Source: Kocuria marina (lineage in GTDB: Bacteria > Actinomycetota > Actinomycetes > Actinomycetales > Micrococcaceae). Taken from it: a DNA stretch of 64,000 bases. Under the pieces are notes generated by a model. The model ran no database searches and was not told the DNA's origin. It was given only the letters and a program-made list of their open reading frames with translations. Made by a program: the position numbers and the translations under genes. The first letter of the stretch is position 1. Each line of letters begins with the position of its first letter. Positions 1,237-62,016 of the stretch are shown here, in pieces. The stretch covers positions 1 through 64,000 of the forward strand of contig NZ_JROM01000022.1 in assembly GCF_000786655.1 (NCBI RefSeq). The letters run 5' to 3'.

Positions 1237-1275
1237 GCCCGGCCGCGGTCGTGCGCAACGGGCCGGGCGGCGTCG
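1231..1275 (-). terminator. Terminator downstream of the secreted nuclease
   Basis: GCCGCCCGGCC pairs with GGCCGGGCGGC across a loop of about 15 nt, just past the stop of the gene ending at 1294. The proximal arm overlaps a copy of the recurrent GCGGCGTCGTC motif at 1267-1277. Confidence 0.6.
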
Positions 1276-1293
1276 TCGTACCGGAAGGGAGGG

Positions 1294-3249
1294 CTACTTC
1301 GTGCCCGCCCGGAACCCGGCGATGAACGGGTCGTGGTCGGAGGAGGCGACCTCGTTCGGGACGTAGTAGTCCAGGGCCGTGGTGCGGTACTGGGCGTACT
1401 GCAGCAAGGGCGACTGGCCCGAGTTGATGTTCCACGCGGCCGCGCCGGTCATGCGCTTGGCGAGCGACGGCGAGATCAGCATGTGGTCGAGCGAACCCAC
1501 CTGGCCCCCGAACACGTACGTGTAGTCGTCCTCGGCGGCCCGTGCGTACCCGGCGCGGTAGAACTCCTGCAGGGGGTCCTCCTGCGCGTACGAGTTGAAG
1601 TCGCCGAGCACGGCCACGTCCTGGGAGCCCGCGGCGGCCGTGAGTTCGGGGATCCAGTCGACGACGGCGCTCGCCTGCGCCACGCGCGACGCGTTCCAGG
1701 CACCCTGGCCGTCACCGGTGTCCCGGTTGGGACCGGTGCGGGGAGCGGAGCCCTTGGACTTGAAGTGGTTGACCACCACCGTGGTGGGTGCTGCGCCGTG
1801 CTTGCCGCCGCCCTTGGTCGCGGTGAACGTGGCCGCGATCGGGGTGCGCGCGTTCTCGAAGGCGCCGCCGGCCACGGCCTCGGAGCCGAGGGCCCGGGCC
1901 TGACCCACCTGCGTGACCTCGCGGGGCTGGTAGACGATCGCGTTGGTGATGAAGTCCTGCTCTGCGACCGGCTGCAGCTCGGAATCCGCCACGGGGACGT
2001 AGGCCCACTTAGTGTAGCCGGCCGCCTTGTTCAGCGCCTTGACCAGGGAGGCGAGCGCCTCGTCCTTGGGCTCGCCGAGCTTCGCGGAGTTTTCGACCTC
2101 CATGAGCCCGACCACGGAGGCATCCACCTTGTTGATCGCCGAGACCGTCTTGGCCTGCTGGCGCTCGAAGTCCGCGCGGTCGTAGGCCCCGCGCGCGTCA
2201 CAGCCCTGCGCCACGTTGTACGTGCCGTCCGTGGAGTAGTTCCCGCCGCGGCAGCCCTTGTCCTGCCCCACGGTGGTGAAGTAGTTCAGCACGTTGAAGG
2301 ACGCGATCCGCACCTGTCCACCCACCCCCGGCTTGGGGTCCGCCGAGCCGGAGAACCGGGCCGGTTCCTTGCCCGGGACCACCGGGGCGGTGGGCTGCAG
2401 GCGCCACTTGTCGAAGCGGTAGTCCACGATCACCGGGGCGGTGATCCGCGCGGTGTCGCCCACGGCCACGGGGTTCTCGGGGGTCAGGTACGGGACCTGG
2501 CGGGGTTCCTGGGTGGGCGAGGCCGCGAAGCCCCGGTTGGTGCCGTCGTCCAATGTGACCGAGATGGCGTCATTGCGCTGTGCCTGGGCGCGCGCCTCGG
2601 GGCTGTTCGGGCGTGCCACCTGAGTGGGTTGGGTGGGCAGCTCCTTGCCCGCGGACAGGCCCAGCTCACCGTAGCGGCCCACGCCATAGGTGTCCGAGAC
2701 CCGGAACTTCTCCTTGGGCAGGTAGAGCATGGATTCGAGGTTCTCGCGGTTCGCGGCGGTGGACGCCCAGTTGTTCGTCACGGGCTTCACTGCGGGGAGC
2801 TTGTCGCGCACCGGAGTGACCTCCACGTTGCCCGCGAGCTGGGTCAGGCCCTTGAACTCCCCGGCCACACCCGTGACCTGCACGCGGTCACCCACGGACA
2901 CCGTGGACTGGGTGGCTCCCGTGTACACGAACACGGCGTTCGAGGCCCGGGAGGTGTCCACGTGCCCACCGGTTCCGGGGGTCTGGATCACGAATCCGCC
3001 CAGGGTCCCCGGATCACCCGGGTACACGGCGGTGACGACGGAGGGCTCGGTGGTGACCGTCTGGCCCTTCAGGGGCGTCTCGTCCCCGGTGCCCTGGATC
3101 TGAGCGATCGACACGGTCCCGGTGGAACCGGAAGGCGCGGGGGCGGCCACCGCGGGTGCTGCGGCCAGGCCGCCGCACAGCAGGAGCGCGCCGGAGGATA
3201 CGGTCGCGATGCGGGTCCGCAGGCTGAACAGGGGTGATGTCACGGGCAT
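1294..3249 (-). CDS. Secreted ExeM/NucH-type endonuclease
   Basis: A 651-residue exported nuclease. ATG at 3249 is preceded by GGAGA at good spacing. A signal peptide covers about residues 1-35. The next ~250 residues form the beta-rich OB-like region of ExeM/NucH enzymes. From about residue 310 comes an endonuclease/exonuclease/phosphatase domain: RIASFNVLNYF, GLMEVENSA, VVVNHFKSKG, VAVLGDFNSY and a terminal SSDHDPFIAGF. These are the expected metal and catalytic Glu, Asn, Asp and His positions. There is no C-terminal anchor or sortase signal, so release into the medium is likely. The family degrades extracellular DNA for phosphate, nucleotide or biofilm turnover. A second EEP nuclease follows upstream at 3430-4683. 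Confidence 0.88.
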   Translation of the reverse strand: MPVTSPLFSLRTRIATVSSGALLLCGGLAAAPAVAAPAPSGSTGTVSIAQIQGTGDETPLKGQTVTTEPSVVTAVYPGDPGTLGGFVIQTPGTGGHVDTSRASNAVFVYTGATQSTVSVGDRVQVTGVAGEFKGLTQLAGNVEVTPVRDKLPAVKPVTNNWASTAANRENLESMLYLPKEKFRVSDTYGVGRYGELGLSAGKELPTQPTQVARPNSPEARAQAQRNDAISVTLDDGTNRGFAASPTQEPRQVPYLTPENPVAVGDTARITAPVIVDYRFDKWRLQPTAPVVPGKEPARFSGSADPKPGVGGQVRIASFNVLNYFTTVGQDKGCRGGNYSTDGTYNVAQGCDARGAYDRADFERQQAKTVSAINKVDASVVGLMEVENSAKLGEPKDEALASLVKALNKAAGYTKWAYVPVADSELQPVAEQDFITNAIVYQPREVTQVGQARALGSEAVAGGAFENARTPIAATFTATKGGGKHGAAPTTVVVNHFKSKGSAPRTGPNRDTGDGQGAWNASRVAQASAVVDWIPELTAAAGSQDVAVLGDFNSYAQEDPLQEFYRAGYARAAEDDYTYVFGGQVGSLDHMLISPSLAKRMTGAAAWNINSGQSPLLQYAQYRTTALDYYVPNEVASSDHDPFIAGFRAGTK

Positions 3250-3429: not shown

Positions 3430-4683
3430 TCAGCGCCTGCCCGGGATCTTGACGTCCACCCACACGAGGCGGTGGTCGGAAGTCGGGAACGGGGACTCAC
3501 CGGTCAGCTCGGAACCGGGCCGGCCCGGAGCGGGCCAGAAGGCACCGGCGTCGAGCAGGGGCAGGTTCTTGGACGGCAACGCGTAGTCCACCCGTAGGTT
3601 CCCGGGGGCGGGATCGTCCGAGAAGTCCGCGGTGTCGAGTGCCGGGCGTGTCACGTGCGTCCGGTTGGCGCCGCCCTGGCGCGCGCTCGCCACCACGGCG
3701 CCCGTGGACGTGGGCTGCGGGTCGCGCACCCGGGAGTTGTCGAGCAGCTGCCGCGCGGCACCCGGGAAGGAATCGCCGTCGTTCGGGTCCGAGTTGTAGT
3801 CGCCCACGATCACGAAGCGCTCGCCGCGGGGCAGGCCGCCGCGCCGCCCGGCGTCGTCGTAGATGTAGCGCGCCGACTTGGTGCCCGTGACGTAATCGGC
3901 CCAGAACCGGATCTCGTCGTTGTTCCGGCGCCCGTTACGGTCCTCGAGGCCGTCGAAGCTGGGCGGCGTGGGGTGCGCGGCCAGCACGTGCACGGTCTTG
4001 TGGCCCACGCGCACGGGGACGTCCCAGTGGGACTTGGAGGACAGCCGCAGCTGCGCAGCCTGCTCCGGCGCGTAGTAGTCGGTGGGCAGGTGGTTGCCGG
4101 GCATGTCCTGCCACCGGAAGTGCTGGAACGTGCGGACCCGATCCCAGGCGATCGGGTACTTGGAGTAGATCACCATGCCGTACTGGCCCGGGAACAGCCC
4201 GAAGCCCCAGGCGTCGTCCGGTCCGCCCACCGTGCCGTCCTGGTTGAGGTCCAGACCGGACGGCACGCCCGTGTTCACCGGCGCCACGTAGTGGTAGGGG
4301 TAGTCCACGGGCGCGTGGCCGTTCTGGCTCACCGCCAGGTAGTTGTCGCGGAACGCCTGCGCGGCGCGTCCGCCCGGGACGTAGTCGAACTCGTTGAGCA
4401 GCACGATGTCCGGGTCGTTGACCTGGATGACCTGGGCGATGTTCCGGGCCTGCTGGTTGTCCGGTGTGGACAGGTCCCGCAGCAATTGCCCCTGCTCGCC
4501 CCGGTTCAGGGACGCGTTGTACGTGGCCACGCGCAGTCCGTGCTTGTCCCGGCTTTCGTGTCCTTTGGACGACGACGCCGCTCGCGGACCTTCCCCCGCG
4601 GCGGCCGGTGCCACGGTGGTCACGGCGAGCACTCCGGCCAGTGCCGCGGCCGAGACCGCAGTGGTACGAGAACGCAGACGCAT
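3430..4683 (-). CDS. Secreted endonuclease/exonuclease/phosphatase family protein
   Basis: A 417-residue exported protein; GGAGG six bases before ATG at 4683 fixes the start. The signal peptide (to about residue 30) ends in an APAAAG-type cleavage site. The rest is one EEP fold: LRVATYNASL opens the domain, VLLNEFDY carries the metal-binding Glu, VLAAHPTPP and FVIVGDYNSDPND carry the catalytic Asp/Asn pair, and SDHRLVWVDVK closes it. This class hydrolyses phosphodiesters in nucleic acids or phospholipids; the substrate cannot be fixed from sequence. A recurrent-motif copy at 4571-4581 encodes AASS right after the signal peptide. Gene order with 1294-3249 suggests shared use, though each has its own leader. 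Confidence 0.82.
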   Translation of the reverse strand: MRLRSRTTAVSAAALAGVLAVTTVAPAAAGEGPRAASSSKGHESRDKHGLRVATYNASLNRGEQGQLLRDLSTPDNQQARNIAQVIQVNDPDIVLLNEFDYVPGGRAAQAFRDNYLAVSQNGHAPVDYPYHYVAPVNTGVPSGLDLNQDGTVGGPDDAWGFGLFPGQYGMVIYSKYPIAWDRVRTFQHFRWQDMPGNHLPTDYYAPEQAAQLRLSSKSHWDVPVRVGHKTVHVLAAHPTPPSFDGLEDRNGRRNNDEIRFWADYVTGTKSARYIYDDAGRRGGLPRGERFVIVGDYNSDPNDGDSFPGAARQLLDNSRVRDPQPTSTGAVVASARQGGANRTHVTRPALDTADFSDDPAPGNLRVDYALPSKNLPLLDAGAFWPAPGRPGSELTGESPFPTSDHRLVWVDVKIPGRR

Positions 4684-7778: not shown

Positions 7779-7810
7779 CGCGAGCGGCGTCGTCGTGCCC
7801 CCGGCTCGCG
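7779..7810. terminator. Weak hairpin between convergent genes
   Basis: CGCGAGC (7779-7785) pairs with GCTCGCG (7804-7810). The loop contains a GCGGCGTCGTC motif copy at 7784-7794. It lies between the convergent transporter and MBL genes. Confidence 0.4.
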
Positions 7811-11188: not shown

Positions 11189-12367
11189 TCAGCGATCAGC
11201 CGAACGCGCGGCGGCTTCCAGCACGGTCCACGCCTGCACCTGCGTGCTGAGTTCCACCGGGGCGCCGACCCGCTGCGCCTGGTTCGCGTGCTGCGCCGGT
11301 TCGGGGGAGAACACCGCGACCGTCTCGCCCACCGTTCGCGCCGCGGCGGGCACCGTGAAGTCCTCGTCCGGGTCGAATTCCCGGCGCCCGTCCCACAGGG
11401 CGTCCGCGGTGTCGGTGACGAGCGCGCGGGCGGTGGTCCGAGCGTCGTCGTCCAGCAACGACGACGACGCCGCTTCGCCCAGGTAGCGCACCAGGATCCC
11501 CGTGAACAGCCCGGCGTCACCGCCGCCCTGACCGCGCAGGACGGGTGCACCGTGGGGGCCGGGGAGCGTGAACTCCCGGGCCGCGCCGTGGACGAGCCGT
11601 GCCGCCCGTTCGAGCCACAGCTCGCGCTCGACGGGGTCCTCGGTGAGCCCCGCGAGCTCGAGGGCCGCACCGAGGGCCGGGCCGCTGTTGTAGGTGTAGA
11701 CGTGCGGGTCCACGGACGTGATCTCCTCCCCGGAGCCCGCCGCGGCCATGCGGATGCCGTCCAGGAACACGCCGCGCTCGGCGTCGAAGAGGGTGTCGAA
11801 CAGCCACGTGAGCAGTGCGCGGGCCTCGGCGGTGCGGTGCATGCGCAGGAACGTCAGGGCCACCGGGGCGGTGGACGCCGTGTTCTTGTAGTCCCGCGTG
11901 GTGTTCCACCACGCACCGCCGCCCATGTTGTCGTCGCAACCGGAGGCGAGGCGCTTGGCCAGAGCGGCGCCGTCGTCCTGCACCGCGCGCGACGTGCGGC
12001 CCGTGGCGGCGACGTCCTCGTCCCGCAGGCGTCCGAGGGCGAGGGCCAACCAGGCCATGTCGTCGAAGAACACGTTGTTGGTCACCCGCCCGCCACTGTG
12101 CACGGCGATGCCCCGCAGCAACCGGTGCCCGCGGGAGCGGGCCAGCTCCGCGGTGTCCTGGTTGCCGGCCTGGTGCTCGCGGGCGGCGGCGTCCACGAAC
12201 GCGTCCAGCAGATGGGCTTGCCACCAGTAGTGCCACGGTCCCCGCCACGGGCGCGGGAACGCGACAGCCCCCAGGTACGTGCCCGGCACGCGCAACGCCC
12301 GCGAACCGAACAGGTGGTCCACGGAGTGCGCGGCCTTGGCGGCGCGGTGGGCGGGGGATTCGGACAT
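11189..12367 (-). CDS. Glycoside hydrolase family 76 protein
   Basis: A 392-residue (alpha/alpha)6-barrel enzyme. The adjacent catalytic Asp pair of GH76 is at residues 102-103 in NNVFFDDMAWLALAL. WWNTTRDYKNTASTAPVAL, DPHVYTYNSGPALGAALEL and FTGILVRYLGEA are further family landmarks. Characterised GH76 proteins are endo-alpha-1,6-mannanases. There is no signal peptide, so this one would act inside the cell or on imported oligosaccharides. One copy of the recurrent 11-mer (11463-11473) encodes AASSS in a loop. The 5' region contains hairpin repeat copy B. Confidence 0.82.
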   Translation of the reverse strand: MSESPAHRAAKAAHSVDHLFGSRALRVPGTYLGAVAFPRPWRGPWHYWWQAHLLDAFVDAAAREHQAGNQDTAELARSRGHRLLRGIAVHSGGRVTNNVFFDDMAWLALALGRLRDEDVAATGRTSRAVQDDGAALAKRLASGCDDNMGGGAWWNTTRDYKNTASTAPVALTFLRMHRTAEARALLTWLFDTLFDAERGVFLDGIRMAAAGSGEEITSVDPHVYTYNSGPALGAALELAGLTEDPVERELWLERAARLVHGAAREFTLPGPHGAPVLRGQGGGDAGLFTGILVRYLGEAASSSLLDDDARTTARALVTDTADALWDGRREFDPDEDFTVPAAARTVGETVAVFSPEPAQHANQAQRVGAPVELSTQVQAWTVLEAAARSADR

Positions 12368-15480: not shown

Positions 15481-16479
15481 GTGAGACGACGCGTAAACCC
15501 TCCGCTACCCACGGTGCGCGGCGTGGGGCCCGCGCGGGTCCGGATGCCCGGCCCGGGTTCCCCGGACCCGGTCTTGCGGGCCCTGGACGGTCTCCCGACC
15601 ACGGCCGCGGACTACGTCCAGCAGCGTTTCCCGAACGACGCCGCGTGGTTCGCCCACGAGGTCGCCGCCGGTCGCGTCCGCGGGGACGACGGCGCCGTCG
15701 TCACCCCGGCCACCCCCTACGAAGCGGGGGCCTCGGTATGGTTCCACCGCCCGGTCCCGGACGACGACGCCGCGCCCATCATCCTCGACGTGCTGTACGA
15801 GGACGAGTGGATCCTGGCGGTGGACAAACCGCACGGGCTGTGCAGCACACCGAAGGGTGAGAACGTCCGCCGCTCCGTGGTCGTCGCCGCGCGCTGCCAG
15901 TTCCACGACGACGAGATCTCCGCACTGCATCGGCTGGACCGCTCCACGGGTGGGGTGCTGCTGCTGAGCAAACACGCGGCGGACCGCGGGGCGTTCCACC
16001 GCATGTTCCAGGAGCGCACGGTGACCAAGACCTATTGGGCCGTGGCCCGTGTCAACGATCGGGTGGGGGAGGAACCGGTCCGGGTGGAGTCCCGGATCCG
16101 CAAGATCCAGGGAGTCGTGCAAGCCTTCGAGGAACCGGGTGAGGTCAACGCCATCACGGACATCCGCCTGCTCGACCGCTTCACCGATGATGCGGGGCAG
16201 TGGGGCTGCTACGAGATCGCTCCGCTGACCGGGCGTACCCATCAGATCCGGGTGCACATGAACTCCCTGGGCCTACCGTTGCGCGGGGACAAGCTGTACC
16301 CGGTGCCGCGGGACGACTTCGACGTGGAGGACCCGGACAACCCCATGCAGTTGATCGCCCGCTCCCTGACCTTCACCCATCCCATGACGGGCAAGACGAC
16401 CACCGTGAACTCACGTCTGTCACCCAGCTCCCACGCGGCTCGTCGATCCGGGGCGTCCAGCGAACTCCCGGCGCACTGA
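15481..16479 (+). CDS. RluA-family pseudouridine synthase
   Basis: A 332-residue RNA pseudouridine synthase. The catalytic motif HRLDRSTGGVLLL lies at residues 150-162 with Asp153. The binding loop AVDKPHGLCSTPKG precedes it, and APLTGRTHQIRVHMNSLG with GDKLYP follow, as in RluA/RluC/RluD enzymes. The N-terminal 60 residues are short and not a clear S4 domain. The target (23S rRNA or tRNA) cannot be deduced. GTG at 15481 has no obvious ribosome site, so a later start is possible. The motif copy at 15763-15773 encodes DDDAA. Confidence 0.85.
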   Translation: MRRRVNPPLPTVRGVGPARVRMPGPGSPDPVLRALDGLPTTAADYVQQRFPNDAAWFAHEVAAGRVRGDDGAVVTPATPYEAGASVWFHRPVPDDDAAPIILDVLYEDEWILAVDKPHGLCSTPKGENVRRSVVVAARCQFHDDEISALHRLDRSTGGVLLLSKHAADRGAFHRMFQERTVTKTYWAVARVNDRVGEEPVRVESRIRKIQGVVQAFEEPGEVNAITDIRLLDRFTDDAGQWGCYEIAPLTGRTHQIRVHMNSLGLPLRGDKLYPVPRDDFDVEDPDNPMQLIARSLTFTHPMTGKTTTVNSRLSPSSHAARRSGASSELPAH

Positions 16480-19450: not shown

Positions 19451-22400
19451 GCCGGACCTGCCCCCGCCCACGGGAGCCCGCATCCGCACGCTGCGCGGGG
19501 TCTGGTAGAAGCCTCCGGCCAGCAGCCCGTCCCGCACGGCGGTCACGAGGTCCTCGGAGGAGAGCACCGAGTCGCCGTTGACCTTTTCCACCACGAGCGA
19601 GTCCATGGCCCTGCGCTGCACGAGCCCGGCCACGGCCTCCGCCGCGAGGCGCAGCAGGGCCGGGTCCGCCTCGAACGCGAGCGCGGTCTTCCCGCCGCGT
19701 TCCAGGTAGAGGATCAGCGCCCCGTCCACGAGCACCACCACGGCACCGGCCTTGCGTCCCGGGCGGTGCTTGGTGCTGGATTCGAGAGCCACCGCTTCGG
19801 GCCAGTCCAGCGCGGCACCGTAGGGGTTGGCGGGGTCCGTGGCCGCGAGGGCGAGGACGCGGGGTTCGGCCTTGCGAGCGGCGTCGTCGTCCGTGAAGCT
19901 GCGCAGCACGTCAACCGTTGCCGGTTGCGTGAACTGGGCGGCGCCGAGACCCTCGATGAAGTACCCGCGCCGCGCGCGGCCCGCGTCCTCGAGGGCACGC
20001 AGGACCTTGTAGACGGTGGAGAACCCACCGGGGACGTCCTCCACGGCCACGGGGCCGCGCGTGAGGATGCCGTAGCGATCGAGCAGCAGCTCGGCCTGGG
20101 CCTGCGCGCGCACGGTGGGGTTGAGTGGCTCGGGGCGCAGCACGGACCAGCGCCCGGCCGTGACACGGTCCTCACCGCCCCCCGCGGCGCGAACGACGCG
20201 AGCGCCGTCGCCGGACGCGGACGCCGCCGGATCCACACCGCCGGGGCCGCGGGATGCGGCCCGCAACCGCGCGGCGCCGCGCCGCCCGGCCGTACGGGAA
20301 CGGCCCGGGCGCTTGGGCGTCTTGTGCGCGGAGTGCCCGCCCGAGACGAGTGCGCGCACCGGGGCGTAGGTGTCATTGGTGATGAGCCCCGCCCACAGCA
20401 GGTTCCACAGCGCAGTGCGCAGCTGGGCCATGTCCACGGACACGCCCGCCTCGGCGAGCGGTTGGACGAGCTGCCACGCGAAGTACGCCCCACCGGCCCG
20501 CAGCACGGCGAGCAGTTCACGTTCCAGCGTGGAGTCCAGGGCCTCGGCGGCGGCCTCGAGCTGCGGGACGGGCGGCAGGGACAGTTCCGCGGACTCGGCC
20601 AGGTGGAACGCGACCCACCCGTCCTCACCGCCCAGGGACCCCGCACCCGAGAAGAGCACCTCGCCCGCGGCCATGAGCTCGTCCAGCATCGCGGGCCGGT
20701 AGTCCACCACGCGCTGCGCGAGCACGAGCGGTTCCCAGGCGGAGGCCGGGACGGGCACCCCAGCCAACTGGTCGATCACGGTGAGCACCCCGTCCAACCC
20801 GCGCAACTGATGCCCCGGCACGGCGTGCTGCCACGCGGGCAGGAACGTGGCGTAGACCTGCGGGTCCACGGGTTCCACGTCCGCGCGCAGGGCGGCCAGG
20901 GAACGGCGGCGCAGGGTGCGCAGCACCTCCACGTCGCACCATTCCGACTCCGACGCCGCGGGGTCCCCGCTCGGGCGGAACGCCCCCTCGCTCACGCGCC
21001 GCTGCTTAGCGAGCGAGCGCAGCGCGGTCTCGACCACGGCGGGCCCCAGGCTCAGGGCCCGCGCGGCCTCCGCCACGCTGAACGGACCGTGGGTGCGCGC
21101 GTACCGGGACACGAGGTCTCCCACGGGGTCCGCGACGGGTTCCAGGAACGCGAGGGGCACACCCATGGGCAGGGGTTGGCCCAGGGCGTCCCGCATCCGC
21201 GCGGCGTCCTCCACCGCGCAGTAGACCTCGCGCCCGCCCACGCGCAGGACGATCGCCCGGTTCGTGGACACCAGGGTGTCCAGCAGCTCGCGGGCGGCGT
21301 CCGCGCTGATGGGTTGGTACTCGGGGGCCACGTCCTCGGTCGCATCGGCGTCCTCGGTGTCGTCGGTCTCCGTGGCGTCGGTCTCCGGGGCGTCGGGGGC
21401 CTCCGGCGCGCTCTGCGCGGGGGACGACGCCGCTGCGGTACCTTCCGCGCGCAAGCGCAGTGCGGCGTCGTCGGCCGTCATGGGACCGAGCAGGCGCAAG
21501 AGGTCCGCCGCGCCCTCCACACCGCGCAACCGGCGGTCCGGCGCGAGGCGCTGCAGCTGCAGGACCGTGGTCTCGATGACCTCGGGATCCAGCAGCTCGC
21601 GTAACTCGGCGCGACCGAGCAGCTCGTTGAGCAGGGAGGGGTCCAGGGACAGGGCCGCGGCCTTGCGCTCGGCCAGGGGCGAATCGCCCTCGTACAGGAA
21701 CTGGGCCACGTACCCGAACAGCAGGGTGCGCGCGAAGGGGGAGGGGGTGTCCGTGGTGGTCTCGACCATGCGCAGTTTGCGCCCGGCCAGATCGCGCTGC
21801 AATTGCAGCAGCGCGGGGACGTCGTACACGTCCTGCAGGCATTCGCGCACGGTCTCGAGGATCACCGGGAACTGCGGGTACTTACGGGCCACGTCCAGCA
21901 ACTGGGCGGAGCGCTGACGCTGTTGCCACAGGGGCGTGCGCTTACCGGGATCCGCGCGCGGCAGCAGCAGAGCACGCGCGGCGTTCTCCCGGAACCGGGA
22001 CGCGAACAGCGCGGAACCACCCACCTCCTCGGTCACGGTGCGTTCGAGCTCGTCCGGGTCGAAGAGGAACAGCTCTGCACCGGGCGGTTCCTCGTCCGTG
22101 GCCGGAACTCGCAGCACGATGCCGTCGTCCGCGGCCTGCGCACTGGCATCCAGACCCCAGCGCTCGTCCAATCGAGCTCGGACCGCGAGTGCCCACGGGC
22201 CGTGCACGGGGGTGCCGAACGGGCTGTGCAACACCACGCGCCAGTCCCCGAGCTCGTCCCGGAACCGCTCGACCACGAGCGTGCGATCGTCCGGGACGTG
22301 CTCCGTGGCCTCCCGCTGTTCCGAGAGGTAGGCCATGAGGTTGTCCCGGGCCCACTCGTCCAGCCCGGAGGCGGCCAGGCGTTCGCGGGCCTCGGTGTCC

Positions 22401-29659: not shown

Positions 29660-29817
29660 GCGTGCTCCTGCCTGTCCTGACCGCGGGCGGGGCGGCGTCC
29701 GGTTCCCGGAACATGGCCGCCCACGGTGCGAGTGTGTGCCGGATTACACCCTAGGGGAGCGCCGCGGGAACACCTATCGGGCCCGCGGGGCGTGCGGGGG
29801 CGGGAGCGGCGTCGTCG

Positions 29818-40949: not shown

Positions 40950-42122
40950 TCAGCTCCTGGACTCGCAGGCCACACCGTCCCCGTCGCCGTCCAGGCCGGG
41001 GCGGTACCCCGGTGTGCCGGCGTAGAGCGGGGCCATCCCCGCCGCGCGCGCCTCGGCGCAGCGTGAGAAGTAGACGTCCGCACCCGGAACGCCCGGGACC
41101 CCCGCACCGGGCGCCTCGGCCTCCGGGACGGCAGCGTCCGCAGGATCGGATACCGCGCCCGCACCGGGTGCGGCCGGAGCTGGTGCCACAGGAGCCGATG
41201 CCTCCGATGTCGAGGGCGCCTCGGCCGCGGGCGCTTGCGCAGCCGGCGCCTCGGTCACGGGGGCCACGGGTGAGTCCGCGGGATCCGGGATGGGACGTGC
41301 CTCCGGCAGCGGCTGCTCGGGGCACGTGTCGAGCACGCGCACCATGGCGTTCTTCTCGGCGTCGGTGACCCACAGCTCGTAGCGCTGCTTGACCGCGATC
41401 TGGGTGGCCACGTACTCGCAGCGCTCGCCGGTGCGCGGCGGCAGCCACGTGGCGGCGTCCGCGTCCGACTTGGTGTTGTTGCTCGGCCCGTCCACGGCGA
41501 GCAGGTTGAGGGGGTCGTTCGCGAGTTCGGTGCGCCGCGCGGCGTCGAGCTGCTGCGCGCCCTTCTGCCACGCGTCCGACAGCGCGACCACGTGATCGAT
41601 CTGCACCTGTGAGCTCGTGGCCTGCCCGGCCACGAAGTCGATCGTCTCGCCGGTGTACGGGCTCTCGAGCGTCCCGGAGCTCACGTTGCACCCGTGCGTC
41701 CCCGGCTTGACGGCGATCCCCGTGAGGTCCCGGCGCAGGATGTCGTTGCGGGTGTCGCAGCCGTTGTGATCGGTGTCCGCCCAGCGCGGGCCGAACTGGT
41801 CCCTCGAGTAGTCGGTCTTGGGTGCGCGCCCCTTCACGGGCAGCTCCCCGAGCGCGGCCAGCGCGGTCCCGGCCGCCGCGTGCTCGGTGGGGTCCTGCGG
41901 GGACGACGACGCCGCGGGGGACGTCGCGTCTCCCGCGCCCCGGGTGGGGGAGGGGGACTGCGTGGCGGGCGGCGTCGTCGCCGGGGCCGCAGCACTCGTG
42001 GTCGCGGAGGCGGACGGGGAGGGTGTGGCCGAATCGGTGGGGGCCGCGCACCCCGTGAGGGCCAGCGCGAGGGCCGCGGCGCCCAGGGCGAGACGGCGAA
42101 CGGGGGTCGTGAGAGGGGACAC
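40950..42122 (-). CDS. Secreted HNH nuclease lipoprotein with excalibur domain
   Basis: A 390-residue exported protein. The signal ends in a lipobox LALTGCAAP. A Ser/Thr/Pro/Ala linker of ~60 residues precedes a DUF1524/GmrSD-like HNH domain (DTRNDILRRDL, GETIDFVAG, QIDHVVALSDAWQ with the catalytic His, NDPLNLLAVDGPSNNTKSD). A second Ala/Pro/Glu linker leads to a C-terminal excalibur calcium-binding domain (RPGLDGDGDGVACES). This is the third exported nuclease of the window. Recurrent 11-mers at 41905 and 41969 lie in the linker, read as AASSS and ATTPP. Confidence 0.88.
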   Translation of the reverse strand: MSPLTTPVRRLALGAAALALALTGCAAPTDSATPSPSASATTSAAAPATTPPATQSPSPTRGAGDATSPAASSSPQDPTEHAAAGTALAALGELPVKGRAPKTDYSRDQFGPRWADTDHNGCDTRNDILRRDLTGIAVKPGTHGCNVSSGTLESPYTGETIDFVAGQATSSQVQIDHVVALSDAWQKGAQQLDAARRTELANDPLNLLAVDGPSNNTKSDADAATWLPPRTGERCEYVATQIAVKQRYELWVTDAEKNAMVRVLDTCPEQPLPEARPIPDPADSPVAPVTEAPAAQAPAAEAPSTSEASAPVAPAPAAPGAGAVSDPADAAVPEAEAPGAGVPGVPGADVYFSRCAEARAAGMAPLYAGTPGYRPGLDGDGDGVACESRS

Positions 42123-44523: not shown

Positions 44524-44558
44524 ACGCCGCGCGGCCACACCGGCCGCGCGGCGTCGTC
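44524..44558. terminator. Terminator of pckG / leader hairpin of nsrR
   Basis: Perfect 13-bp stem, ACGCCGCGCGGCC (44524-44536) with GGCCGCGCGGCGT (44542-44554). The right arm carries a copy of the recurrent 11-mer (44548-44558). Confidence 0.6.
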
Positions 44559-46334: not shown

Positions 46335-46348
46335 GCCTCCCCGACATG

Positions 46349-46391
46349 ACGACGACGCCGCGTGGCCACCCGGGCCGCGCGGCGTCGTCGT
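46349..46391. terminator. Bidirectional terminator built from two motif copies
   Basis: Perfect 14-bp arms, ACGACGACGCCGCG (46349-46362) and CGCGGCGTCGTCGT (46378-46391), with inner GC pairing, then TGTTCTCC. Each arm contains the recurrent 11-mer, in opposite orientation. It lies between convergent hmp and manB. Confidence 0.8.
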
Positions 46392-47958: not shown

Positions 47959-49167
47959 ATGTTCGACATGGCCGAGTTCTTGAGGATGACCAATCCGATC
48001 CAGCACTACGCGTGGGGATCGCGATCGGTCCTCGCCGGCATGCAGGGGCGCTCCGCACCCACCGAGGAACCCGAGGCCGAGCTGTGGATGGGTGCCCACG
48101 CGAGCGCTCCGTCCCGGGTGACCCTCGACGGGGTCCAGCGCGGCCTGGACGAAGTGGCCCCCGACCTGCCGTTCCTCCTGAAGATCCTCGCGATCGCGGC
48201 GCCGCTGTCCATCCAGGTGCACCCGTCCGAGGAACAGGCCCGTGAGGGGTTCGCGCGGGAGAACGCCGCGGGCGTCGCGCGGGACTCCGCGCACCGTAAT
48301 TACAAGGACGAGCGCGCCAAACCGGAGACGGTCGTGGCGCTGTCACCCATGTGGTTGCTCGCGGGTCAGCAGGATCGGGCCGACCTGAAGCGTCTCTCCC
48401 GGGAACTAAACCTCCCGTGGCTCGCGGACGCCGCGGCGTCCGAGTGTCCCGTGCAGTACGCGCTCGAGCTCGCCGACGACGCCGCTGCCGCCGCCGTGCG
48501 CGCGTGCGTCACCGCTGTGGATACCACCCCGGCCACCTCGCCCCGCGGCGAGGACGCGGACGAACCCCGGTTGTCCGCGGAGGCCGATCCCGTGGAACGC
48601 GCGACGCACCTGATCCGGTTGTTGACCCACCACTACCCGGGTGACCGGGGTCTGCTCGTGGCCCTGTGCATGAACATGGTGCACCTGGCCCCCGGCCAGG
48701 CCCTGTTCACCCCGGACCGACAGGTGCACGCGTACCTCAGCGGCACCGCGGTGGAGATCATGGGGTGCTCGGACAACGTGCTGCGCGCGGGTCTGACCGC
48801 CAAGCACGTGGACGTCCCGGAACTGTTGCGGGTCATGGCCACTGCCCAGCAGCCCGTGAGCGTCCTGGAGCCGCGCGAGGCCGAGGACGGCGTGGTGCGG
48901 TACCCGCTGTGGGATCCCGCCCTCTCCCTGGCCGCGGTGCGCGTGAGCCCGCAGCGCCCCGTCACCCGGGAGCTCGCGGGGGTGTGCATGGTGCTCGTGA
49001 CCGAGGGGGACGTGGAGGTCTCCGCGCGCTCCGCCGGTGACGCGGACGCGGAGGGTGTGCGGGCGACGTCGGGCGAGTCCTTGATCTGCCTGGACACCCC
49101 GAGCACGGTGACCCTGAGCGGGGACGGGCGCGTGTTCCTCGTGGAGGCGGTCACGCCCGCGCGCTGA
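47959..49167 (+). CDS. manA: Mannose-6-phosphate isomerase, class I
   Basis: Interconverts fructose-6-P and mannose-6-P. 402-residue cupin enzyme. MTNPIQHYAWGSR starts the domain, SIQVHPSEEQAREGF and HRNYKDERAKPETVVALSPM provide zinc ligands, and LFTPDRQVHAYLSGTAVEIMGCSDNVLR is the classic signature with the active-site Arg. The start is uncertain between 47959 and 47986. Motif copy 48475-48485 encodes DDAA. Confidence 0.92.
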   Translation: MFDMAEFLRMTNPIQHYAWGSRSVLAGMQGRSAPTEEPEAELWMGAHASAPSRVTLDGVQRGLDEVAPDLPFLLKILAIAAPLSIQVHPSEEQAREGFARENAAGVARDSAHRNYKDERAKPETVVALSPMWLLAGQQDRADLKRLSRELNLPWLADAAASECPVQYALELADDAAAAAVRACVTAVDTTPATSPRGEDADEPRLSAEADPVERATHLIRLLTHHYPGDRGLLVALCMNMVHLAPGQALFTPDRQVHAYLSGTAVEIMGCSDNVLRAGLTAKHVDVPELLRVMATAQQPVSVLEPREAEDGVVRYPLWDPALSLAAVRVSPQRPVTRELAGVCMVLVTEGDVEVSARSAGDADAEGVRATSGESLICLDTPSTVTLSGDGRVFLVEAVTPAR

Positions 49168-49274: not shown

Positions 49275-49826
49275 ATGGACCGGCGGATCGAACGCACCCG
49301 TGCGGCAGTGGTGGAAGCCGCCGTCGAACTGGTCGCGCGCCGGGGCTCCCAGGTGGGGATGACCGAGATCGCGCAGGCCGCGGGCGTCAGCCGTAAGGCC
49401 GTGTACGAGAACTTCGGCTCGCGGGACCAGGTGCTGCTCGGCGCCACGCAATCCTTGCTGGCTCGCGTGCCCTTGGACCCGAGCACCCTGCAGAACCGCG
49501 AGGCCAGCCCGCTGGACCTGGTCCTGCCCCCGCTCGTGGCGCACCTGGACGAGCACCAGGAGTTCTACCGGGCCGTGCTGTGCGGGCCCGGGCCCTCCCT
49601 GGCACGCGGGGCGGTCGCGGAACACGCCATGACGGGTCTGCGCAGCCTCCGGGAGGATCACGAGAGCGGGGAGGAGCGCGGCGTCGTCGAGATCCGGGAC
49701 CGGTTCGTGGTCCACGGTCTACTGGGCGTGCTCGCGGACGCACTCGCCGAACAGCAGGACGCGGACCTGTTGACCCTTGCCCGGGTGCTCAACGCGAGCC
49801 TCGCCAACGGCGGCCCCGAGAACTGA
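49275..49826 (+). CDS. TetR family transcriptional regulator
   Basis: 183 residues; GGAGC seven bases before ATG at 49275. Helix-turn-helix GMTEIAQAAGVSRKAVYENFG at about residues 29-49. The C-terminal region contains the regulator tail (LVLPPLVAHLDEHQEFYRAVL). The upstream frame is open further but lacks a start signal. A target is not evident; the following SDR gene (199-bp gap) is a candidate. The motif copy at 49678-49688 reads as GVV, a frame unlike the other copies. Confidence 0.82.
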   Translation: MDRRIERTRAAVVEAAVELVARRGSQVGMTEIAQAAGVSRKAVYENFGSRDQVLLGATQSLLARVPLDPSTLQNREASPLDLVLPPLVAHLDEHQEFYRAVLCGPGPSLARGAVAEHAMTGLRSLREDHESGEERGVVEIRDRFVVHGLLGVLADALAEQQDADLLTLARVLNASLANGGPEN

Positions 49827-51480: not shown

Positions 51481-51659
51481 TGGCAGGACTCCGGTGTGAG
51501 CCGCGCGTGGGACGGGGCCGGGGCGGCGTCGTCGGCCGCGCGCACGATACACCGGGGGGCCGGGCACGCCGAAAGCCCTGCGCGCTGTGGAATAGTGGTG
51601 CTGATGTCTTCGGCGGTACCCGCCGAACACCCCCAACCCGTTTCGAGGAGTGGTCGTTG

Positions 51660-54302: not shown

Positions 54303-54722
54303 ATGATACAACTCGCGAGCCCGGTGTTCCCGGGAACGTCCCCGTCGGCGGTCTCGGCGCTGGTCCACGAACGGCTCTGCGTCGTGGCACGTCATTACGA
54401 CGACGCCGCGGAGCACCTCGCGGGGCTCGCCTCCCGGATCGCGTCCCTCGCGGAAACCCACGGCGCCTGGGAGGGCCCGGGCGCCAGATCCTTCCGGGCC
54501 CGTGCCGATCGCCACGAACAGGAACTGCGCGGCGCGTCGCAGCGCTGCCGCGAAACCGCTCAACTCGTGCGAACGGGGGCGGCCGCGCTCGCGGAACGGG
54601 TCGCGGCGGTGGAGAGCATCGCCCAGGTGGGGGCTCCCATGGCCGCGGCACTGAGCACGGTGCTGGGCGTGGGACTCGCGATGGGTCACGCTGCGAGCGC
54701 GTCGTGGGGTGGGACGCCGTGA
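54303..54722 (+). CDS. WXG100-like helical protein
   Basis: 139 residues; AAGGA seven bases before ATG at 54303. It is almost all helix, with a W-E-G turn at residues 56-58 (THGAWEGPGARSFRARAD) between two amphipathic helices. This is the pattern of ESX/WXG100 proteins, extended at the C-terminus by a hydrophobic Ala/Gly segment (GAPMAAALSTVLGVGLAM). The next gene starts inside its stop codon and encodes a lipase-like protein, so they are probably translated together. No ESX secretion ATPase is in the window. Confidence 0.65.
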   Translation: MIQLASPVFPGTSPSAVSALVHERLCVVARHYDDAAEHLAGLASRIASLAETHGAWEGPGARSFRARADRHEQELRGASQRCRETAQLVRTGAAALAERVAAVESIAQVGAPMAAALSTVLGVGLAMGHAASASWGGTP

Positions 54723-56935
54723 CCGCGGCGACGCGGACGGTGCGAGGCCCGAGCACCGGACCCTCGGAGGACGCAGCTGTGCCGGCCGCGGGTGAGGAAC
54801 AGGCCGGGAGGTCGGCCGTGCCGGTCTCGGGAGGTGGCCCCGCCGCCGTGCCGGTTGCGGAAGATGTGGGCGCCTCGTCCCCGCGGGACACCGCCGTGAG
54901 CATGGAACACGGCGTGACCGAGGTCCATGGGCGGGCCGAGGACCTCCAGAGCGAACTGTTCACCCCGGGTTCCGGGGAGCGTCCCGCGCCGGACGGCTAC
55001 GCAGACCCGGAACGGGTCATAGCCGCCGCGGAAGGCGCGAGAACCAGCATGGAGGTCTCGGGTGGTGTCCCGGGCGGCGGCGCGTTCAGCGTGAACACGG
55101 ACGTCATCTCGGGGATCGAGGGCTCGCTCGCCGGGGTGGCCGAGACCGTGGGCGGCGCCCTCGCCGGGCTCGTCCCGGTCACCGCCGAACTGCACCTGTG
55201 GTCCCTCACGGGTCAACCGTCCCTGGCGGGTGCGGGGGCGCTCGCCGATCTCGTGAGCCGCGATCTGCTCGGGCAGATGGCCGGGCTGGAGGCCTCTGCC
55301 GCACGACTGGTTCTCGCGCGACAGAACTACGAGACCGTGGAGAGGGCATTGACGTCCCTACTGGCGGGGCCGGTGTGGGACTTGCCCCTGTACGGTGTGA
55401 CCCGCCCTCTGGCCCGGGATTGCGGTCGGACCCTGGAGGACCTGGACGTCGCACTGGCTCGCGCGGGGATCGACTCACCGCACGAGTTCCTCGAGCGGGT
55501 CCAACCGTGGCAGTACGGGCTCATCATCCGGGGAGGTGGGCCGCGCGGGACCGACGCCCTCATTCGCGGTCCCGGCCTGGACGATCTCATGGAGGGGCTG
55601 CTTCGGTACCCCGTCGTGCCCGGCGGGGAAGCCTCCGGGGCCCACACCGCCCCGGGAGCCGGTGCGGGCACCTCGGGAGCCGGTGCGGACGTACCAGGGC
55701 CCGGCGCCGTCGTGGCGGAGCCGGACGGGAGAACCGGCGGTGCGGCGTCGTCGGCGCCGAGGCCCTTGACGCTGGGCCAGCACGCGCGAGCGCTGGCCGT
55801 GGGGCTGCTCACCGCGTACGGCAGGTCCGAGAAGACCACCGGAGGTGCGGGCGACCCGTTGCGGGATGCCGCGGGGGAGGACCCCGGGGTGCTCGAGGCC
55901 ATGCTCGCACCCGCCGCGGCAGCCGTGCTGCCGGCTTCCCTGGCGGGCATCGCGTGGTGCACGCCGTATCGCAACGGGCGCCGGTTGACCCCGGCAGAGG
56001 CCTTCGACCGCGGTGTGCCGGCTGCCCTGCGACCGGCGCTCGGGCCGCGCGCGTTACGCGAGGCGCGCCGGGAGGTGTTCACCGGGGTGACCCCCGCCAA
56101 TGCCGCCCGCCACCACATGACGGGCATGCCCGAGCGGCCGCTTCCGGCCGGGGTGCGGCACGCGGGGGCCGTGCCCACCACGATCGCGGGGACCGCCGCG
56201 GCGCTCAAGGACGCCAAGAACATCGTCTCGGGCGCGGGCCCGGACGGGGCGCAGGTCGAGAACAGCACGGTCATGGTGCAGAAGGCCACGGACGGGAACG
56301 GGAGGACGGCGTACTCCGTGGTGCTGACCGGGACCGAGAAGTGGGAGGACAGTCCCGGCGTGCATGATCTGAAGGGGATCGGGCAGGGCATCACGGCGCA
56401 ACCGGACGCCGCCCTCACCGAGCTGCCCCAGGCGCAGCGCATGGCCGTGCAGGCCCTGCAGGACGCGGGCATCCGCCCCGGGGACACCGTGGTGCTCACG
56501 GGCCACAGTCTGGGCGGGATCGACGCCGCGGGGCTGGCCGCGAACCGCGCGTTCCGTGAGCGCTACGACGTCGCCGCGGTCACCACATTCGGTTCGCCCG
56601 TGGGGGACTTCGAGATCCCCGAGGGCACGTCCGTGATGGCCGTGGAACACGTGGACGACGTCGTGCCCACCCTGGACGGCGTGCCCAACCCGGATGCCGG
56701 CCACCGATCCACGGTGCGCGTGAACACCCCCTACCAGGATGCGCTGACCCTGAAGCAGGGGGTCGCGGGGGTCGGGGCGCATGAGATGTACGTGTACACG
56801 GTGGGCGCCCAGGGGATCACCGATTCGCGCCACCCGGCCGTGGTGGCTCATGAGCGGCGGCTCGCGGACGCGGTGCCCCATGGGCCCGGGACGCGCACCG
56901 AAACGTACGTCTACCAGGGACGGGAGGAACACTGA
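54719..56935 (+). CDS. Large lipase-domain protein paired with a WXG-like protein
   Basis: 738 residues from GTG at 54719 (4-nt overlap). Residues 1-110 are disordered and acidic/Ala-rich. ~120-240 form long helices (SGIEGSLAGVAETVGGALAG; GLEASAARLVLARQNYETVE) recalling secreted ESX substrates. A linker of Gly/Ala repeats lies near 310-345. The C-terminal ~250 residues are an alpha/beta hydrolase of lipase-3 type. The nucleophile elbow GHSLGG is at 595-600 (Ser597), likely Asp646/647 in VDDVVP, and His688 in AHEMYVY. There is no Sec signal peptide, consistent with type VII export or intracellular action. Esterase or phospholipase activity is inferred. Confidence 0.7.
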   Translation: MTAATRTVRGPSTGPSEDAAVPAAGEEQAGRSAVPVSGGGPAAVPVAEDVGASSPRDTAVSMEHGVTEVHGRAEDLQSELFTPGSGERPAPDGYADPERVIAAAEGARTSMEVSGGVPGGGAFSVNTDVISGIEGSLAGVAETVGGALAGLVPVTAELHLWSLTGQPSLAGAGALADLVSRDLLGQMAGLEASAARLVLARQNYETVERALTSLLAGPVWDLPLYGVTRPLARDCGRTLEDLDVALARAGIDSPHEFLERVQPWQYGLIIRGGGPRGTDALIRGPGLDDLMEGLLRYPVVPGGEASGAHTAPGAGAGTSGAGADVPGPGAVVAEPDGRTGGAASSAPRPLTLGQHARALAVGLLTAYGRSEKTTGGAGDPLRDAAGEDPGVLEAMLAPAAAAVLPASLAGIAWCTPYRNGRRLTPAEAFDRGVPAALRPALGPRALREARREVFTGVTPANAARHHMTGMPERPLPAGVRHAGAVPTTIAGTAAALKDAKNIVSGAGPDGAQVENSTVMVQKATDGNGRTAYSVVLTGTEKWEDSPGVHDLKGIGQGITAQPDAALTELPQAQRMAVQALQDAGIRPGDTVVLTGHSLGGIDAAGLAANRAFRERYDVAAVTTFGSPVGDFEIPEGTSVMAVEHVDDVVPTLDGVPNPDAGHRSTVRVNTPYQDALTLKQGVAGVGAHEMYVYTVGAQGITDSRHPAVVAHERRLADAVPHGPGTRTETYVYQGREEH

Positions 56936-60387: not shown

Positions 60388-60441
60388 AGCATCCACCCCA
60401 TCGTGATCCGGCGCGAACACGGTGGCCCGGAGGGAGAAGTC

Positions 60442-62016
60442 ATGTCCCAGGTATTCACACTGCCCGACGTGGGTGAGGGTCTGACCGAGGCCGACATCCT
60501 GGCCTGGAAGGTGTCCGAGGGGGACACCGTGTCCGTCAACCAGGTGCTCGTGGAGATCGAGACCGCCAAGTCCGTGGTGGAACTGCCCTCCCCGTTCGAG
60601 GGCACGGTCCAGGAGATCCTGGTCGGCGAGGGGGACACCGTGGAGGTGGGCACCCCCATCATCTCGGTGAGCTCCGCGGACGACGCTCCCGCCGGCGCCA
60701 CGGACCCGGGCTACACGGGTTCCGCCCCGGAGGACGGTCTCGCCGACGCTCCCGTGCCGGACACCGCGGCGTCGTCCGGTGAGGAGGCGACGTCGGGTTC
60801 GGGGCGCAGCATGGACTCGGCCCAGGGCAAGGCGCTCGTGGGTTCGGGCCCCAAGGCGGACCCGGTGCGCAGGCGGCGTCGTACCCGCGTGGGCATGCGC
60901 ACGGACGCCGAGGCCCCCCAGGGACTCAGCGCGTCGACCTCCCGCGCCGACGACGCCGCGGGGCCGGGCGACGAGCGTAAGCACGGGTGGGCGGACCGGT
61001 TGTCCAAGACGGGCCTGGGAAGCGCGGCCGCGGATCTCGCCGAGAAGGCCGGGAAGATCCGGGACCGCGGGGAGTCGTGGTTGAAGTCCCGGGACGAGCC
61101 CGCCCAGCAGTGGCCCGCCTCGGCGTCGATCCCGCGCCGGCCGAACCTGGCCAAGCCCCCGGTGCGTAAAGCGGCCAAGGAGATGGGCATCGACCTCGCG
61201 GACGTCCAGGCCACCGGCGACGGCGGCCAGGTCACCAAGCGCGATCTGCTCGCCTACGCGGCGCACCTGCGCGAGGTGGAGGACGGACCGGACACGTTCT
61301 GGACCCACACCGGTCAACCGACCAATGCGCGCGAGGAACGCATCCGCGTCAAGGGCGTGCGCAAGGCGACCGCCCAGAACATGGTCAAGTCCGCGTTCAG
61401 CGCGCCCCACGTGTCGATCTTCGTGGACGTGGACGCCTCCCGGACCATGGAGTTCGTCAAGCGGCTCAAGCAGTCCCCGCACTTCGAGGGTGTGAAGGTC
61501 ACGCCGCTGTTGATCCTGGCCAAGGCCGTGATCTGGGCGGCCGCCCGCAACCCGCAGGTCAATGCCACGTGGACCGACACCGAGATCATCATCAAGCGCT
61601 ACATGAACCTGGGCATCGCCGCGGCCACGCCCCGGGGTCTGCTGGTGCCCAACATCAAGGACGCGCAGGACCTCAGCCTCCGGGAACTGGCCATCGCGCT
61701 GCACGAGTTGACGCAGACCGCGCGTGCCGGGCGCACCCAGCCCGGGGACATGCAGGGCGGGACGCTGTCCATCACGAACATCGGTGCACTGGGTATCGAT
61801 ACGGGAACCCCGATCATCAACCCCGGTGAAGCGGCCATCGTGGCCTTCGGGACCATCAAGCAGAAGCCGTGGGTCGTGGACGGGGACGTCATCCCCCGCT
61901 GGATCACGACTCTGGCGGGTTCGTTCGACCACCGCGTGGTGGACGGTGACCTCTCCGCACGGTTCATGGCGGACGTGGCCCGGATCCTCGAGGAGCCCGC
62001 GCTGCTGCTGGACTGA
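60442..62016 (+). CDS. 2-oxoacid dehydrogenase E2 acyltransferase
   Basis: 524 residues; GGAGA before ATG at 60442. One N-terminal lipoyl domain ([20 protein letters not shown], lipoyl-Lys in ETAKS) is followed by a ~120-residue disordered linker and a peripheral-subunit-binding domain ([31 protein letters not shown]). The catalytic domain ends in [17 protein letters not shown] with the His-Asp pair. Two recurrent 11-mers (60766, 60949) fall in the linker in different frames (AASS and DDAA). E3 is not encoded here. Confidence 0.92.

What the first reader, a model, noticed from the sequence alone, without database searches (positions are those of the whole stretch)
1267..60959. A 24-copy, strand-neutral 11-mer (GACGACGCCGC) that behaves like a DNA uptake signal
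The exact 11-mer or its complement starts at: 1267, 7784, 19878, 21462, 23385, 29806, 41969, 44548, 46379, 49678, 51523, 55742, 60766 (as GCGGCGTCGTC on +); and 4571, 11463, 15763, 21423, 26059, 29508, 41905, 46351, 48475, 54399, 60949 (as GACGACGCCGC). A hand estimate at ~72% GC predicts well under one copy. Orientation is 13:11, arguing against KOPS or Chi. In genes it is read in at least four frames (DDAA, AASS, ATTP, GVV), so protein-level selection cannot explain it. It favours linkers, loops and intergenic DNA, and some copies pair as terminators. Many extend to GCGGCGTCGTCGT. Uptake sequences in Neisseria and Pasteurellaceae show all of these traits. Micrococcus, in the same family, is naturally transformable. 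To my knowledge no uptake sequence has been described for Actinobacteria.
Basis: partly seen in the sequence, partly recalled or inferred. Interest (0 to 1): 0.85.

Follow-up and report, generated by a model that had tools for sequence, protein, structure and literature searches.

The report
DNA-uptake-like signal in Kocuria genomes
An 11-letter DNA word is scattered hundreds of times, on both strands, through the genomes of one group of Kocuria bacteria, in the same pattern as the tags that some other bacteria use to recognise and take up DNA of their own kind; whether it does that job here still has to be tested.

Summary
All 24 copies lie at the stated coordinates (0.46 expected), and the 3.07-Mb genome holds 633, 315 forward and 318 reverse (reversed-pattern control 14). 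In a 428-kb sample it is the top 11-mer under order-4 and order-5 Markov models. Copies inside genes exceed synonymous-codon shuffling (77 vs 16.1±3.1). Density is three times higher between genes, and close pairs are mostly head-to-head (14 convergent, 1 divergent, 3 tandem). The excess marks one clade of Kocuria: 12 of 12 genomes hold 335-823 copies, the other 15 hold 15-141. One position drifts between subclades. Samples from both halves of a complete chromosome are strand-neutral, against Chi and KOPS. Between species, copies stay intact 2.7 times as often as matched DNA, but hardly so between the two closest genomes. The genome carries comEA, comEC, dprA and two tad loci; comEC and two tad loci are needed for transformation in Micrococcus luteus. 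Best reading: a DNA uptake sequence that arose independently in an actinobacterium with a Flp/Tad-type competence apparatus. No uptake experiment exists; function is inferred.

The parts
1267..1277 (-). motif GACGACGCCGC, intergenic by my gene caller, extended form
4571..4581 (+). motif, in gene 3430-4683(-), extended form
7784..7794 (-). motif, between 6868-7773(+) and 7838-8698(-), extended form
11463..11473 (+). motif, in gene 11189-12367(-), extended form
15763..15773 (+). motif, in pseudouridine synthase gene, extended form
19878..19888 (-). motif, in lhr-like helicase gene 19448-24463(-), extended form
21423..21433 (+). motif, left arm of convergent pair inside the lhr-like gene
21462..21472 (-). 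motif, right arm of that pair
23385..23395 (-). motif, in the lhr-like gene
26059..26069 (+). motif, in FAD-linked oxidase gene
29508..29518 (+). motif, in acyl-CoA thioesterase gene
29806..29816 (-). motif, intergenic by my gene caller, extended form
41905..41915 (+). motif, left arm of convergent pair in GmrSD_C/Excalibur gene, extended form
41969..41979 (-). motif, right arm of that pair
44548..44558 (-). motif, intergenic, downstream of PEPCK gene, extended form
46351..46361 (+). motif, left arm of hairpin between convergent genes 45144-46334(+) and 46479-47888(-), extended form
46379..46389 (-). motif, right arm of the same hairpin, extended form
46349..46391 (.). hairpin of the two copies: 19-bp unbroken stem, MFE -45.9 kcal/mol for 46341-46400, z -6.26
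48475..48485 (+). motif, in phosphomannose isomerase gene
49678..49688 (-). motif, in gene 49182-49826(+)
51523..51533 (-). motif, intergenic by my gene caller
54399..54409 (+). motif, intergenic by my gene caller, extended form
55742..55752 (-). motif, in lipase-like gene 54779-56935(+)
60766..60776 (-). motif, in 2-oxoacid dehydrogenase acyltransferase gene 60442-62016(+)
60949..60959 (+). motif, in the same acyltransferase gene

Best explanation
GACGACGCCGC (full consensus about gg(A/c)CGACGACGCCGC(g/t)) works as a DNA uptake sequence of one clade of Kocuria. A surface component of the competence apparatus, by analogy with Micrococcus luteus a Flp/Tad pilus or minor pilin acting before ComEA and ComEC, binds DNA carrying the word more readily, so DNA of the same clade is taken up and recombined preferentially. 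Biased uptake and recombination then accumulate the word over the whole chromosome. Shown here: the genome-wide, strand-neutral, clade-specific excess, its independence of codons, the intergenic preference, the convergent pairs, the cross-species conservation with turnover, and the presence of competence genes. Inferred: that the cells are competent, that the word affects uptake, and which protein binds it.
For: 633 copies genome-wide, 315:318. Top 11-mer in 428 kb at Markov orders 4 and 5, second at order 3 behind its own one-base shift; 125 vs 1.96 at order 3 and 10.1 at order 5. 13-mer ACGACGACGCCGC 58 vs 0.14; beyond about 3 bases of flank only weak composition bias remains. CDS copies 77 vs 16.05 (sd 3.1, largest of 100 shuffles 26); all 37 DDAA tetrapeptides of the sample use the motif's codons, and DDAA is 37 vs 6.8 by composition. 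Intergenic 0.68/kb vs 0.22/kb in genes; pairs closer than 60 bp: 14 convergent, 1 divergent, 3 tandem, unrelated loops. Intergenic density: convergent 2.12/kb, codirectional 0.59, divergent 0.34. G026, G012 and G018 also show intergenic preference and CDS excess; in 547 kb of G012, 0.76/kb vs 0.20/kb, pairs 6 convergent, 2 divergent, 2 tandem. Clade A is one split with 100/100 support in a ComEC tree of 23 of 27 genomes; 12 of 12 members hold 335-823 copies, the 15 other Kocuria 15-141. Drift at position 2 in the subclade G018/G007/G002/G001. Pooled conservation 121 of 313 vs 45.3 expected. comEA-comEC, dprA and two tad loci present. M. luteus needs comEC and both tad clusters for transformation (PMC4322843, passages).
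Against: No uptake data. comEC, dprA and T2SSE-family ATPases are also present in the Kocuria without the motif (14, 15 and 15 of 15), so machinery does not track the motif; that fits a specificity added later but is not positive evidence. About 206 copies per Mb is fewer than the roughly 1900 10-mers per N. meningitidis or N. gonorrhoeae genome (PMC3630211, passage). Between G000 and its 96%-identical sister G008 conservation shows little excess (17 of 24 vs 0.665; reverse 17 of 21 vs 0.679), and pairs with G018 show 0-2 intact copies each. After masking the word, (GAC)3 is still 45 vs 8.5 expected, so part of the enrichment is a wider GAC-run or near-motif excess that I did not resolve. A paper on K. 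rhizophila 301 calls the competence system 'either incomplete or highly divergent' (PMC13388538, passage). Convergent-gene preference is weak in G012 (0.96 vs 0.76 and 0.59 per kb). Gene calls are from a simple model of my own, not an annotation.
Confidence: 0.68

Rival explanations
1. The word is the binding site of a clade-specific chromosomal DNA-binding protein (nucleoid, repair or segregation factor), kept for a function unrelated to DNA import.
For: Selection or drive clearly acts on the DNA, copies occur in every one of the 28 stretches of G012 sampled over the chromosome, and no uptake experiment exists.
Against: Known oriented or localised signals do not fit: strand-neutral on both halves of G012 (40:47 and 30:34) and equal density (0.279 vs 0.272 per kb). 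Site turnover and convergent inverted pairs are described for uptake sequences (PMC3630211 passage for the pairs) and need an extra reason here.
Confidence: 0.17
2. It is a transcription-terminator or RNA-hairpin module; single copies are decayed halves.
For: 14 of 18 close pairs are convergent in the G000 sample; six folded examples have z from -2.1 to -6.3; intergenic regions between convergent genes are richest in G000.
Against: At most 28 of 125 copies are in convergent pairs, and 5 of the 14 pairs lie inside called genes. 77 of 125 copies lie inside called genes in all six frames with a codon-independent excess. No T-run in the 14 plus-strand bases after the nine intergenic pairs. Loops are unrelated.
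Confidence: 0.06
3. Codon use and acidic or alanine-rich linkers of a G+C-rich proteome make the word common.
For: DDAA and AASS frames make up 61 of 77 copies inside genes. Genomes outside the genus reach 193 copies in the family and 416 in the order. In genus g3 (G083) the similar GGACGACGCCG is 21 of 22 inside genes, without pairs.
Against: Synonymous shuffling accounts for 16 of the 77; 48 further copies are intergenic. Three low-copy Kocuria (G006, G017, G013) have 0 intergenic copies and 2, 3 and 2 in genes vs 1.1, 2.6 and 1.1 shuffled.
Confidence: 0.03
4. Chi-like or KOPS-like oriented recombination or segregation signal.
For: Over-represented short words with such roles exist (recalled, no call).
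Against: No strand bias: contig C3, with GC skew of one sign, 41:35; sampled halves of G012 40:47 (p 0.52) and 30:34 (p 0.71).
Confidence: 0.03
5. A dispersed mobile palindrome (REP/BIME or MITE).
For: Inverted pairs with short loops.
Against: Similarity stops within a few bases of the 11-mer and loops are unrelated; Y1 transposase (PF01797) in 0 of 27 genus genomes, with 5 of 14 control genomes positive; 77 of 125 copies are inside genes.
Confidence: 0.02

Closest known systems
DUS of Neisseriaceae (10-12 bp, minor pilin ComP)
   Same: Short non-palindromic word in hundreds of copies, inverted pairs, variants that follow phylogeny (PMC3630211 passages)
   Different: Different phylum and word; lower density; Tad/Flp loci rather than a known ComP (ComP not searched); uptake effect unproven; drift rather than clean dialects
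USS of Pasteurellaceae (9-bp core)
   Same: Genome-wide word that lets cells tell self DNA from foreign (PMC7811141, start of abstract in listing)
   Different: Different word and phylum; the AT-rich flanks of USS (recalled) are not seen here
Flp/Tad-dependent natural transformation of Micrococcus luteus
   Same: comEA beside comEC and two separate tad loci are present (PMC4322843 passages)
   Different: The term 'uptake sequence' occurs 0 times in the three M. luteus papers searched; Kocuria competence is not shown here
Chi and KOPS
   Same: Short words over-represented genome-wide (recalled)
   Different: Those are strand-biased (recalled); this is neutral

Membership tests
DNA uptake sequence (DUS/USS) | short word over-represented across the genome | tested here: met
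   633 copies; 125 vs 1.96 in 428 kb
DNA uptake sequence (DUS/USS) | no strand preference along the chromosome | tested here: met
   315:318; 40:47 and 30:34 in samples of the two halves of G012
DNA uptake sequence (DUS/USS) | intergenic preference and inverted pairs near gene ends | tested here: met
   0.68 vs 0.22 per kb; 14 convergent, 1 divergent, 3 tandem pairs; convergent intergenic 2.12/kb in G000, weaker in G012
DNA uptake sequence (DUS/USS) | excess not explained by codon use | tested here: met
   77 vs 16.05; G026 32 vs 7.4, G012 30 vs 8.2, G018 7 vs 1.5
DNA uptake sequence (DUS/USS) | shared by a clade, with dialects | tested here: met
   12 of 12 in one clade, 0 of 15 outside above 141; only drift at position 2, no clean dialect switch
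DNA uptake sequence (DUS/USS) | competence machinery present | tested here: met
   comEA, comEC, dprA, two tad loci; presence only, and also in Kocuria without the motif
DNA uptake sequence (DUS/USS) | even spacing (as the finding predicted) | tested here: not met
   gap coefficient of variation 0.80-1.10 after merging clusters; not in my view a defining feature
DNA uptake sequence (DUS/USS) | DNA with the word is taken up or transforms better | not testable with these tools
   needs a bench assay
DNA uptake sequence (DUS/USS) | a dedicated receptor binds the word | not testable with these tools
   no receptor identified
Chi / KOPS | orientation bias relative to replication | tested here: not met
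REP/BIME elements | conserved palindromic unit and RAYT (Y1 transposase) | tested here: not met
   flanks and loops unrelated; PF01797 in 0 of 27
restriction-modification target | methylated at the word | not testable with these tools
   no methylome held
intrinsic terminator | hairpin followed by T-run at gene ends | tested here: inconclusive
   hairpins strong; 9 of 14 convergent pairs lie between called genes; no T-run in the 14 plus-strand bases shown after these nine; minus-strand sides not examined

The most novel reading that the evidence does not exclude
A clade of Kocuria has evolved, independently of Neisseriaceae and Pasteurellaceae, a self-recognition uptake sequence read by a Flp/Tad-pilus-dependent competence machine in a monoderm actinobacterium, with the word drifting between subclades.
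Probability: 0.62. Interest if true: 0.9.

Novelty: new variant of a known kind. Interest (0 to 1): 0.78.

Why it matters
If true, uptake sequences are not peculiar to two Gram-negative families but arose at least once in Actinomycetota with a different type of pilus, which would allow a comparative test of why bacteria evolve a preference for their own DNA. The complete genome among the carriers has the published length of K. rhizophila DC2201, a derivative of the quality-control strain ATCC 9341 (PMC12500396, passages), so the idea can be tested directly in a laboratory strain.

Tried and rejected
Even spacing: not found; one 25.6-kb desert (G000 C3:97011-122654) shows no evident prophage on reading the start of each called protein, but no family search was run on it. 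A second dialect in genus g3 (G083: GGACGACGCCG 209 copies): rejected, because in 220 kb 21 of 22 copies are inside genes and none are paired (a first gene calling of G083 failed, its G+C3 cut-off being too high, and its intergenic figures are void). Another word in low-copy Kocuria: 7 of 15 such genomes sampled at about 84 kb each; no listed 11-mer exceeds 14 copies (G006, CGACGACGACG, 1.29 expected), against 24 copies of the motif in the 64-kb window; G009's top 11-mer is a poly-C run and G020 shows an unexplained ACGACG excess. Four genera other than Kocuria were sampled at 20-60 kb per genome without a comparable word, except G083 above and a CGAGGTGGCA repeat in G244. Tracking of the motif by comEC, dprA or T2SSE ATPases: none, as they occur in 26, 27 and 27 of 27 genus genomes. 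Naming relatives by a genome-contig scan: none of the 80 loci kept (of 593) is a Kocuria. The ComEC tree used wrong reading frames for several rows and is discarded; one search replaces it with 23 of 27 genomes (G015 has no ComEC match; G003, G013 and G023 have one there, but gave no BLAST hit to the G000 protein in my script and were dropped), so 12 carriers and 11 of the 15 others are in the tree.
Full report
What was checked. The 24 copies are at the stated coordinates. The window is contig C15:1-64000 of a 3,066,141-base genome in 62 contigs, with 315 forward and 318 reverse copies, the reversed-pattern control giving 4 and 10. In a 428-kb sample of this genome (window plus L031-L050) the 11-mer is the most over-represented 11-mer under order-4 and order-5 Markov models and second under order 3, where the word shifted by one base leads; there are 125 copies against 1.96 expected at order 3 and 10.1 at order 5. 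Flank counts give gg(A/c)CGACGACGCCGC(g/t); ACGACGACGCCGC occurs 58 times against 0.14. Single-base changes at positions 3, 4, 6, 7, 9 and 10 leave 0-7 copies each, near expectation; changes at positions 1, 2, 5, 8 and 11 stay above it, position 8 largely through the register of the GAC repeat. After masking the word, (GAC)3 is still 45 against 8.5 expected; this residue is unexplained.

Not codons. Of 125 copies 48 are intergenic and 77 inside genes, 0.68 against 0.22 per kb. Shuffling synonymous codons within genes gives 16.05 (sd 3.1, largest of 100: 26) against 77; a pooled shuffle that keeps codon-junction dinucleotides gives 17.8 (sd 3.3, largest of 30: 26). DDAA occurs 37 times against 6.8 by composition and all 37 use the motif's codons; AASS occurs 33 times against 6.3, 24 of them as the motif. 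So the word seems to shape protein sequence, not the reverse.

Anatomy. Neighbouring copies closer than 60 bp are 14 convergent, 1 divergent and 3 tandem, with unrelated loops. Five of the 14 are inside called genes and nine between genes. Six folded examples have z-scores from -2.1 to -6.3. Intergenic density is 2.12/kb between convergent genes, 0.59 codirectional, 0.34 divergent. Close pairs in G026 are 5 convergent only, in 152 kb of G012 4 convergent only, in G018 1 convergent (with the 9-base core CGACGCCGC: 9 convergent, 2 divergent, 1 tandem). In 547 kb, 28 stretches, of the single 2,697,540-base contig of G012 there are 151 copies (2.56 expected), 58 intergenic (0.76/kb) and 92 in genes (0.20/kb), pairs 6 convergent, 2 divergent, 2 tandem; the preference for convergent gene pairs is weak there (0.96, 0.76 codirectional, 0.59 divergent per kb).

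Orientation. In the G012 samples the two halves give 40:47 (p 0.52) and 30:34 (p 0.71) and densities of 0.279 and 0.272 per kb. The origin is assumed near base 1; the share of plus-strand coding is mostly above one half before and mostly below after about 1.35 Mb in the same call, which fits. In G000, contig C3 has GC skew of one sign throughout and 41:35. Chi and KOPS are therefore unlikely.

Distribution. Among 27 genomes of the genus, 12 have 335-823 copies and 15 have 15-141. The 12 are exactly those with 82-100% identity to the window's adenylosuccinate lyase (G001 in two pieces of 82 and 87%); the other 15 have 74-78%. In a ComEC tree of 23 of the 27 genomes the 12 form one group with 100/100 support (rooted at the midpoint for drawing only). 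In 245 genomes of the family (18 of this genus) the largest count outside the genus is 193 (G183). In 149 genomes of the order the largest is 416 in 3.8 Mb (G295), whose copies I did not place in or between genes. Three low-copy Kocuria (G006, G017, G013; 80-116 kb each) have 0 intergenic copies, and 2, 3 and 2 in genes against 1.1, 2.6 and 1.1 shuffled. The ratio of the word to the variant GCCGACGCCGC is 1.7-2.7 in the subclade G018, G007, G002, G001 and 3.6-5.7 in the other eight carriers (my division of counts): drift, not a clean dialect switch.

Conservation. In the region orthologous to the window, over the ordered pairs of six carriers without G000/G008, copies are intact in 121 of 313 aligned cases against 45.3 for G+C-matched 11-mers. 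The pairs share sites and are not independent; single ratios run from 0 to 5.2, those with G018 on small counts. Between G000 and its sister G008 (96% identity) the excess is small (17 of 24 vs 0.665, 17 of 21 vs 0.679). Constraint at single sites is thus weak and turnover high, which fits a word kept by biased uptake and recombination.

Organism. The contig length of G012 (onwards) equals the published size of K. rhizophila DC2201, 2,697,540 bp (PMC6161389, passage); from this I infer that the genus is Kocuria. The species of G000 is not identified.

Machinery. G000 has comEA (SLBB and HHH domains) beside comEC, dprA, and two loci with T2SSE ATPases of TadA type: one with two T2SSF proteins and a TadE-like pilin, the other with at least one T2SSF protein and a small DUF4244 protein whose TAEYAVIVLAA segment resembles the M. 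luteus Flp segment printed in PMC6370729 (passage). In M. luteus loss of comEC or of tad genes of either cluster abolished transformation, tadB loss nearly so (PMC4322843, passages only). A K. rhizophila paper lists comEA, comEC and dprA but judges the system incomplete or highly divergent (PMC13388538, passage). comEC, dprA and T2SSE ATPases also occur in Kocuria without the motif, so specificity, if real, was added in one clade.

Literature. In the held library 'uptake sequence' with 'Kocuria' gave 0 papers; Kocuria with natural transformation and competence gave 2, of which I read passages of one; 'uptake signal sequence' with Actinobacteria and competence gave 1 review of pathogens (listing only); 'DNA uptake sequence' with Micrococcus luteus and natural transformation gave 1 review, whose uptake-sequence passage shown concerns Neisseria. 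Of 132 papers I saw 15 listings. Three M. luteus papers hold 'uptake sequence' 0 times. Inverted DUS pairs and dialects congruent with phylogeny are described for Neisseriaceae (PMC3630211, passages). The library lacks most subscription journals, so absence there is weak evidence of novelty.

Verdict. The uptake reading is the best supported and most of its testable predictions held, with the exceptions told above, but it remains without a functional test.

Noticed in passing
G009 C1:129181-129270 and C1:163086-163805 (L077, L076): The ComEC domain of G009, a low-copy Kocuria, matches in two pieces about 34 kb apart, suggesting a broken or rearranged comEC.
   Followed up: no
G020 stretches L114-L117 with L052: ACGACGACG occurs 23 times against 0.22 expected by order-3 Markov. 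Unexplained.
   Followed up: no
G244 stretches L228, L229, L233: CGAGGTGGCA occurs 13 times in 60 kb against 0.36 expected; a repeat or another genome-wide word.
   Followed up: no
G083 stretches L225-L227, L236-L243: Longer words such as ACCTCCCTTAAAC (8) and AACGCCAGCCCCG (9) recur in 220 kb; they look like an interspersed repeat.
   Followed up: no
G295 (order-level relative, 3.8 Mb): 416 copies of the same 11-mer, 188:228; whether coding-driven or a second uptake-like signal was not tested.
   Followed up: no
G000 C3:97011-122654: A 25.6-kb stretch without the motif, G+C 64-68% in 5-kb bins between 95 and 120 kb, ordinary-looking genes.
   Followed up: partly
window and L031-L049: (GAC)3 stays over-represented (45 vs 8.5) after the motif is masked; near-motif variants or a wider GAC-run excess.
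   Followed up: no
window 40950-42122: A gene for a GmrSD_C plus Excalibur domain protein carries a convergent motif pair.
   Followed up: no
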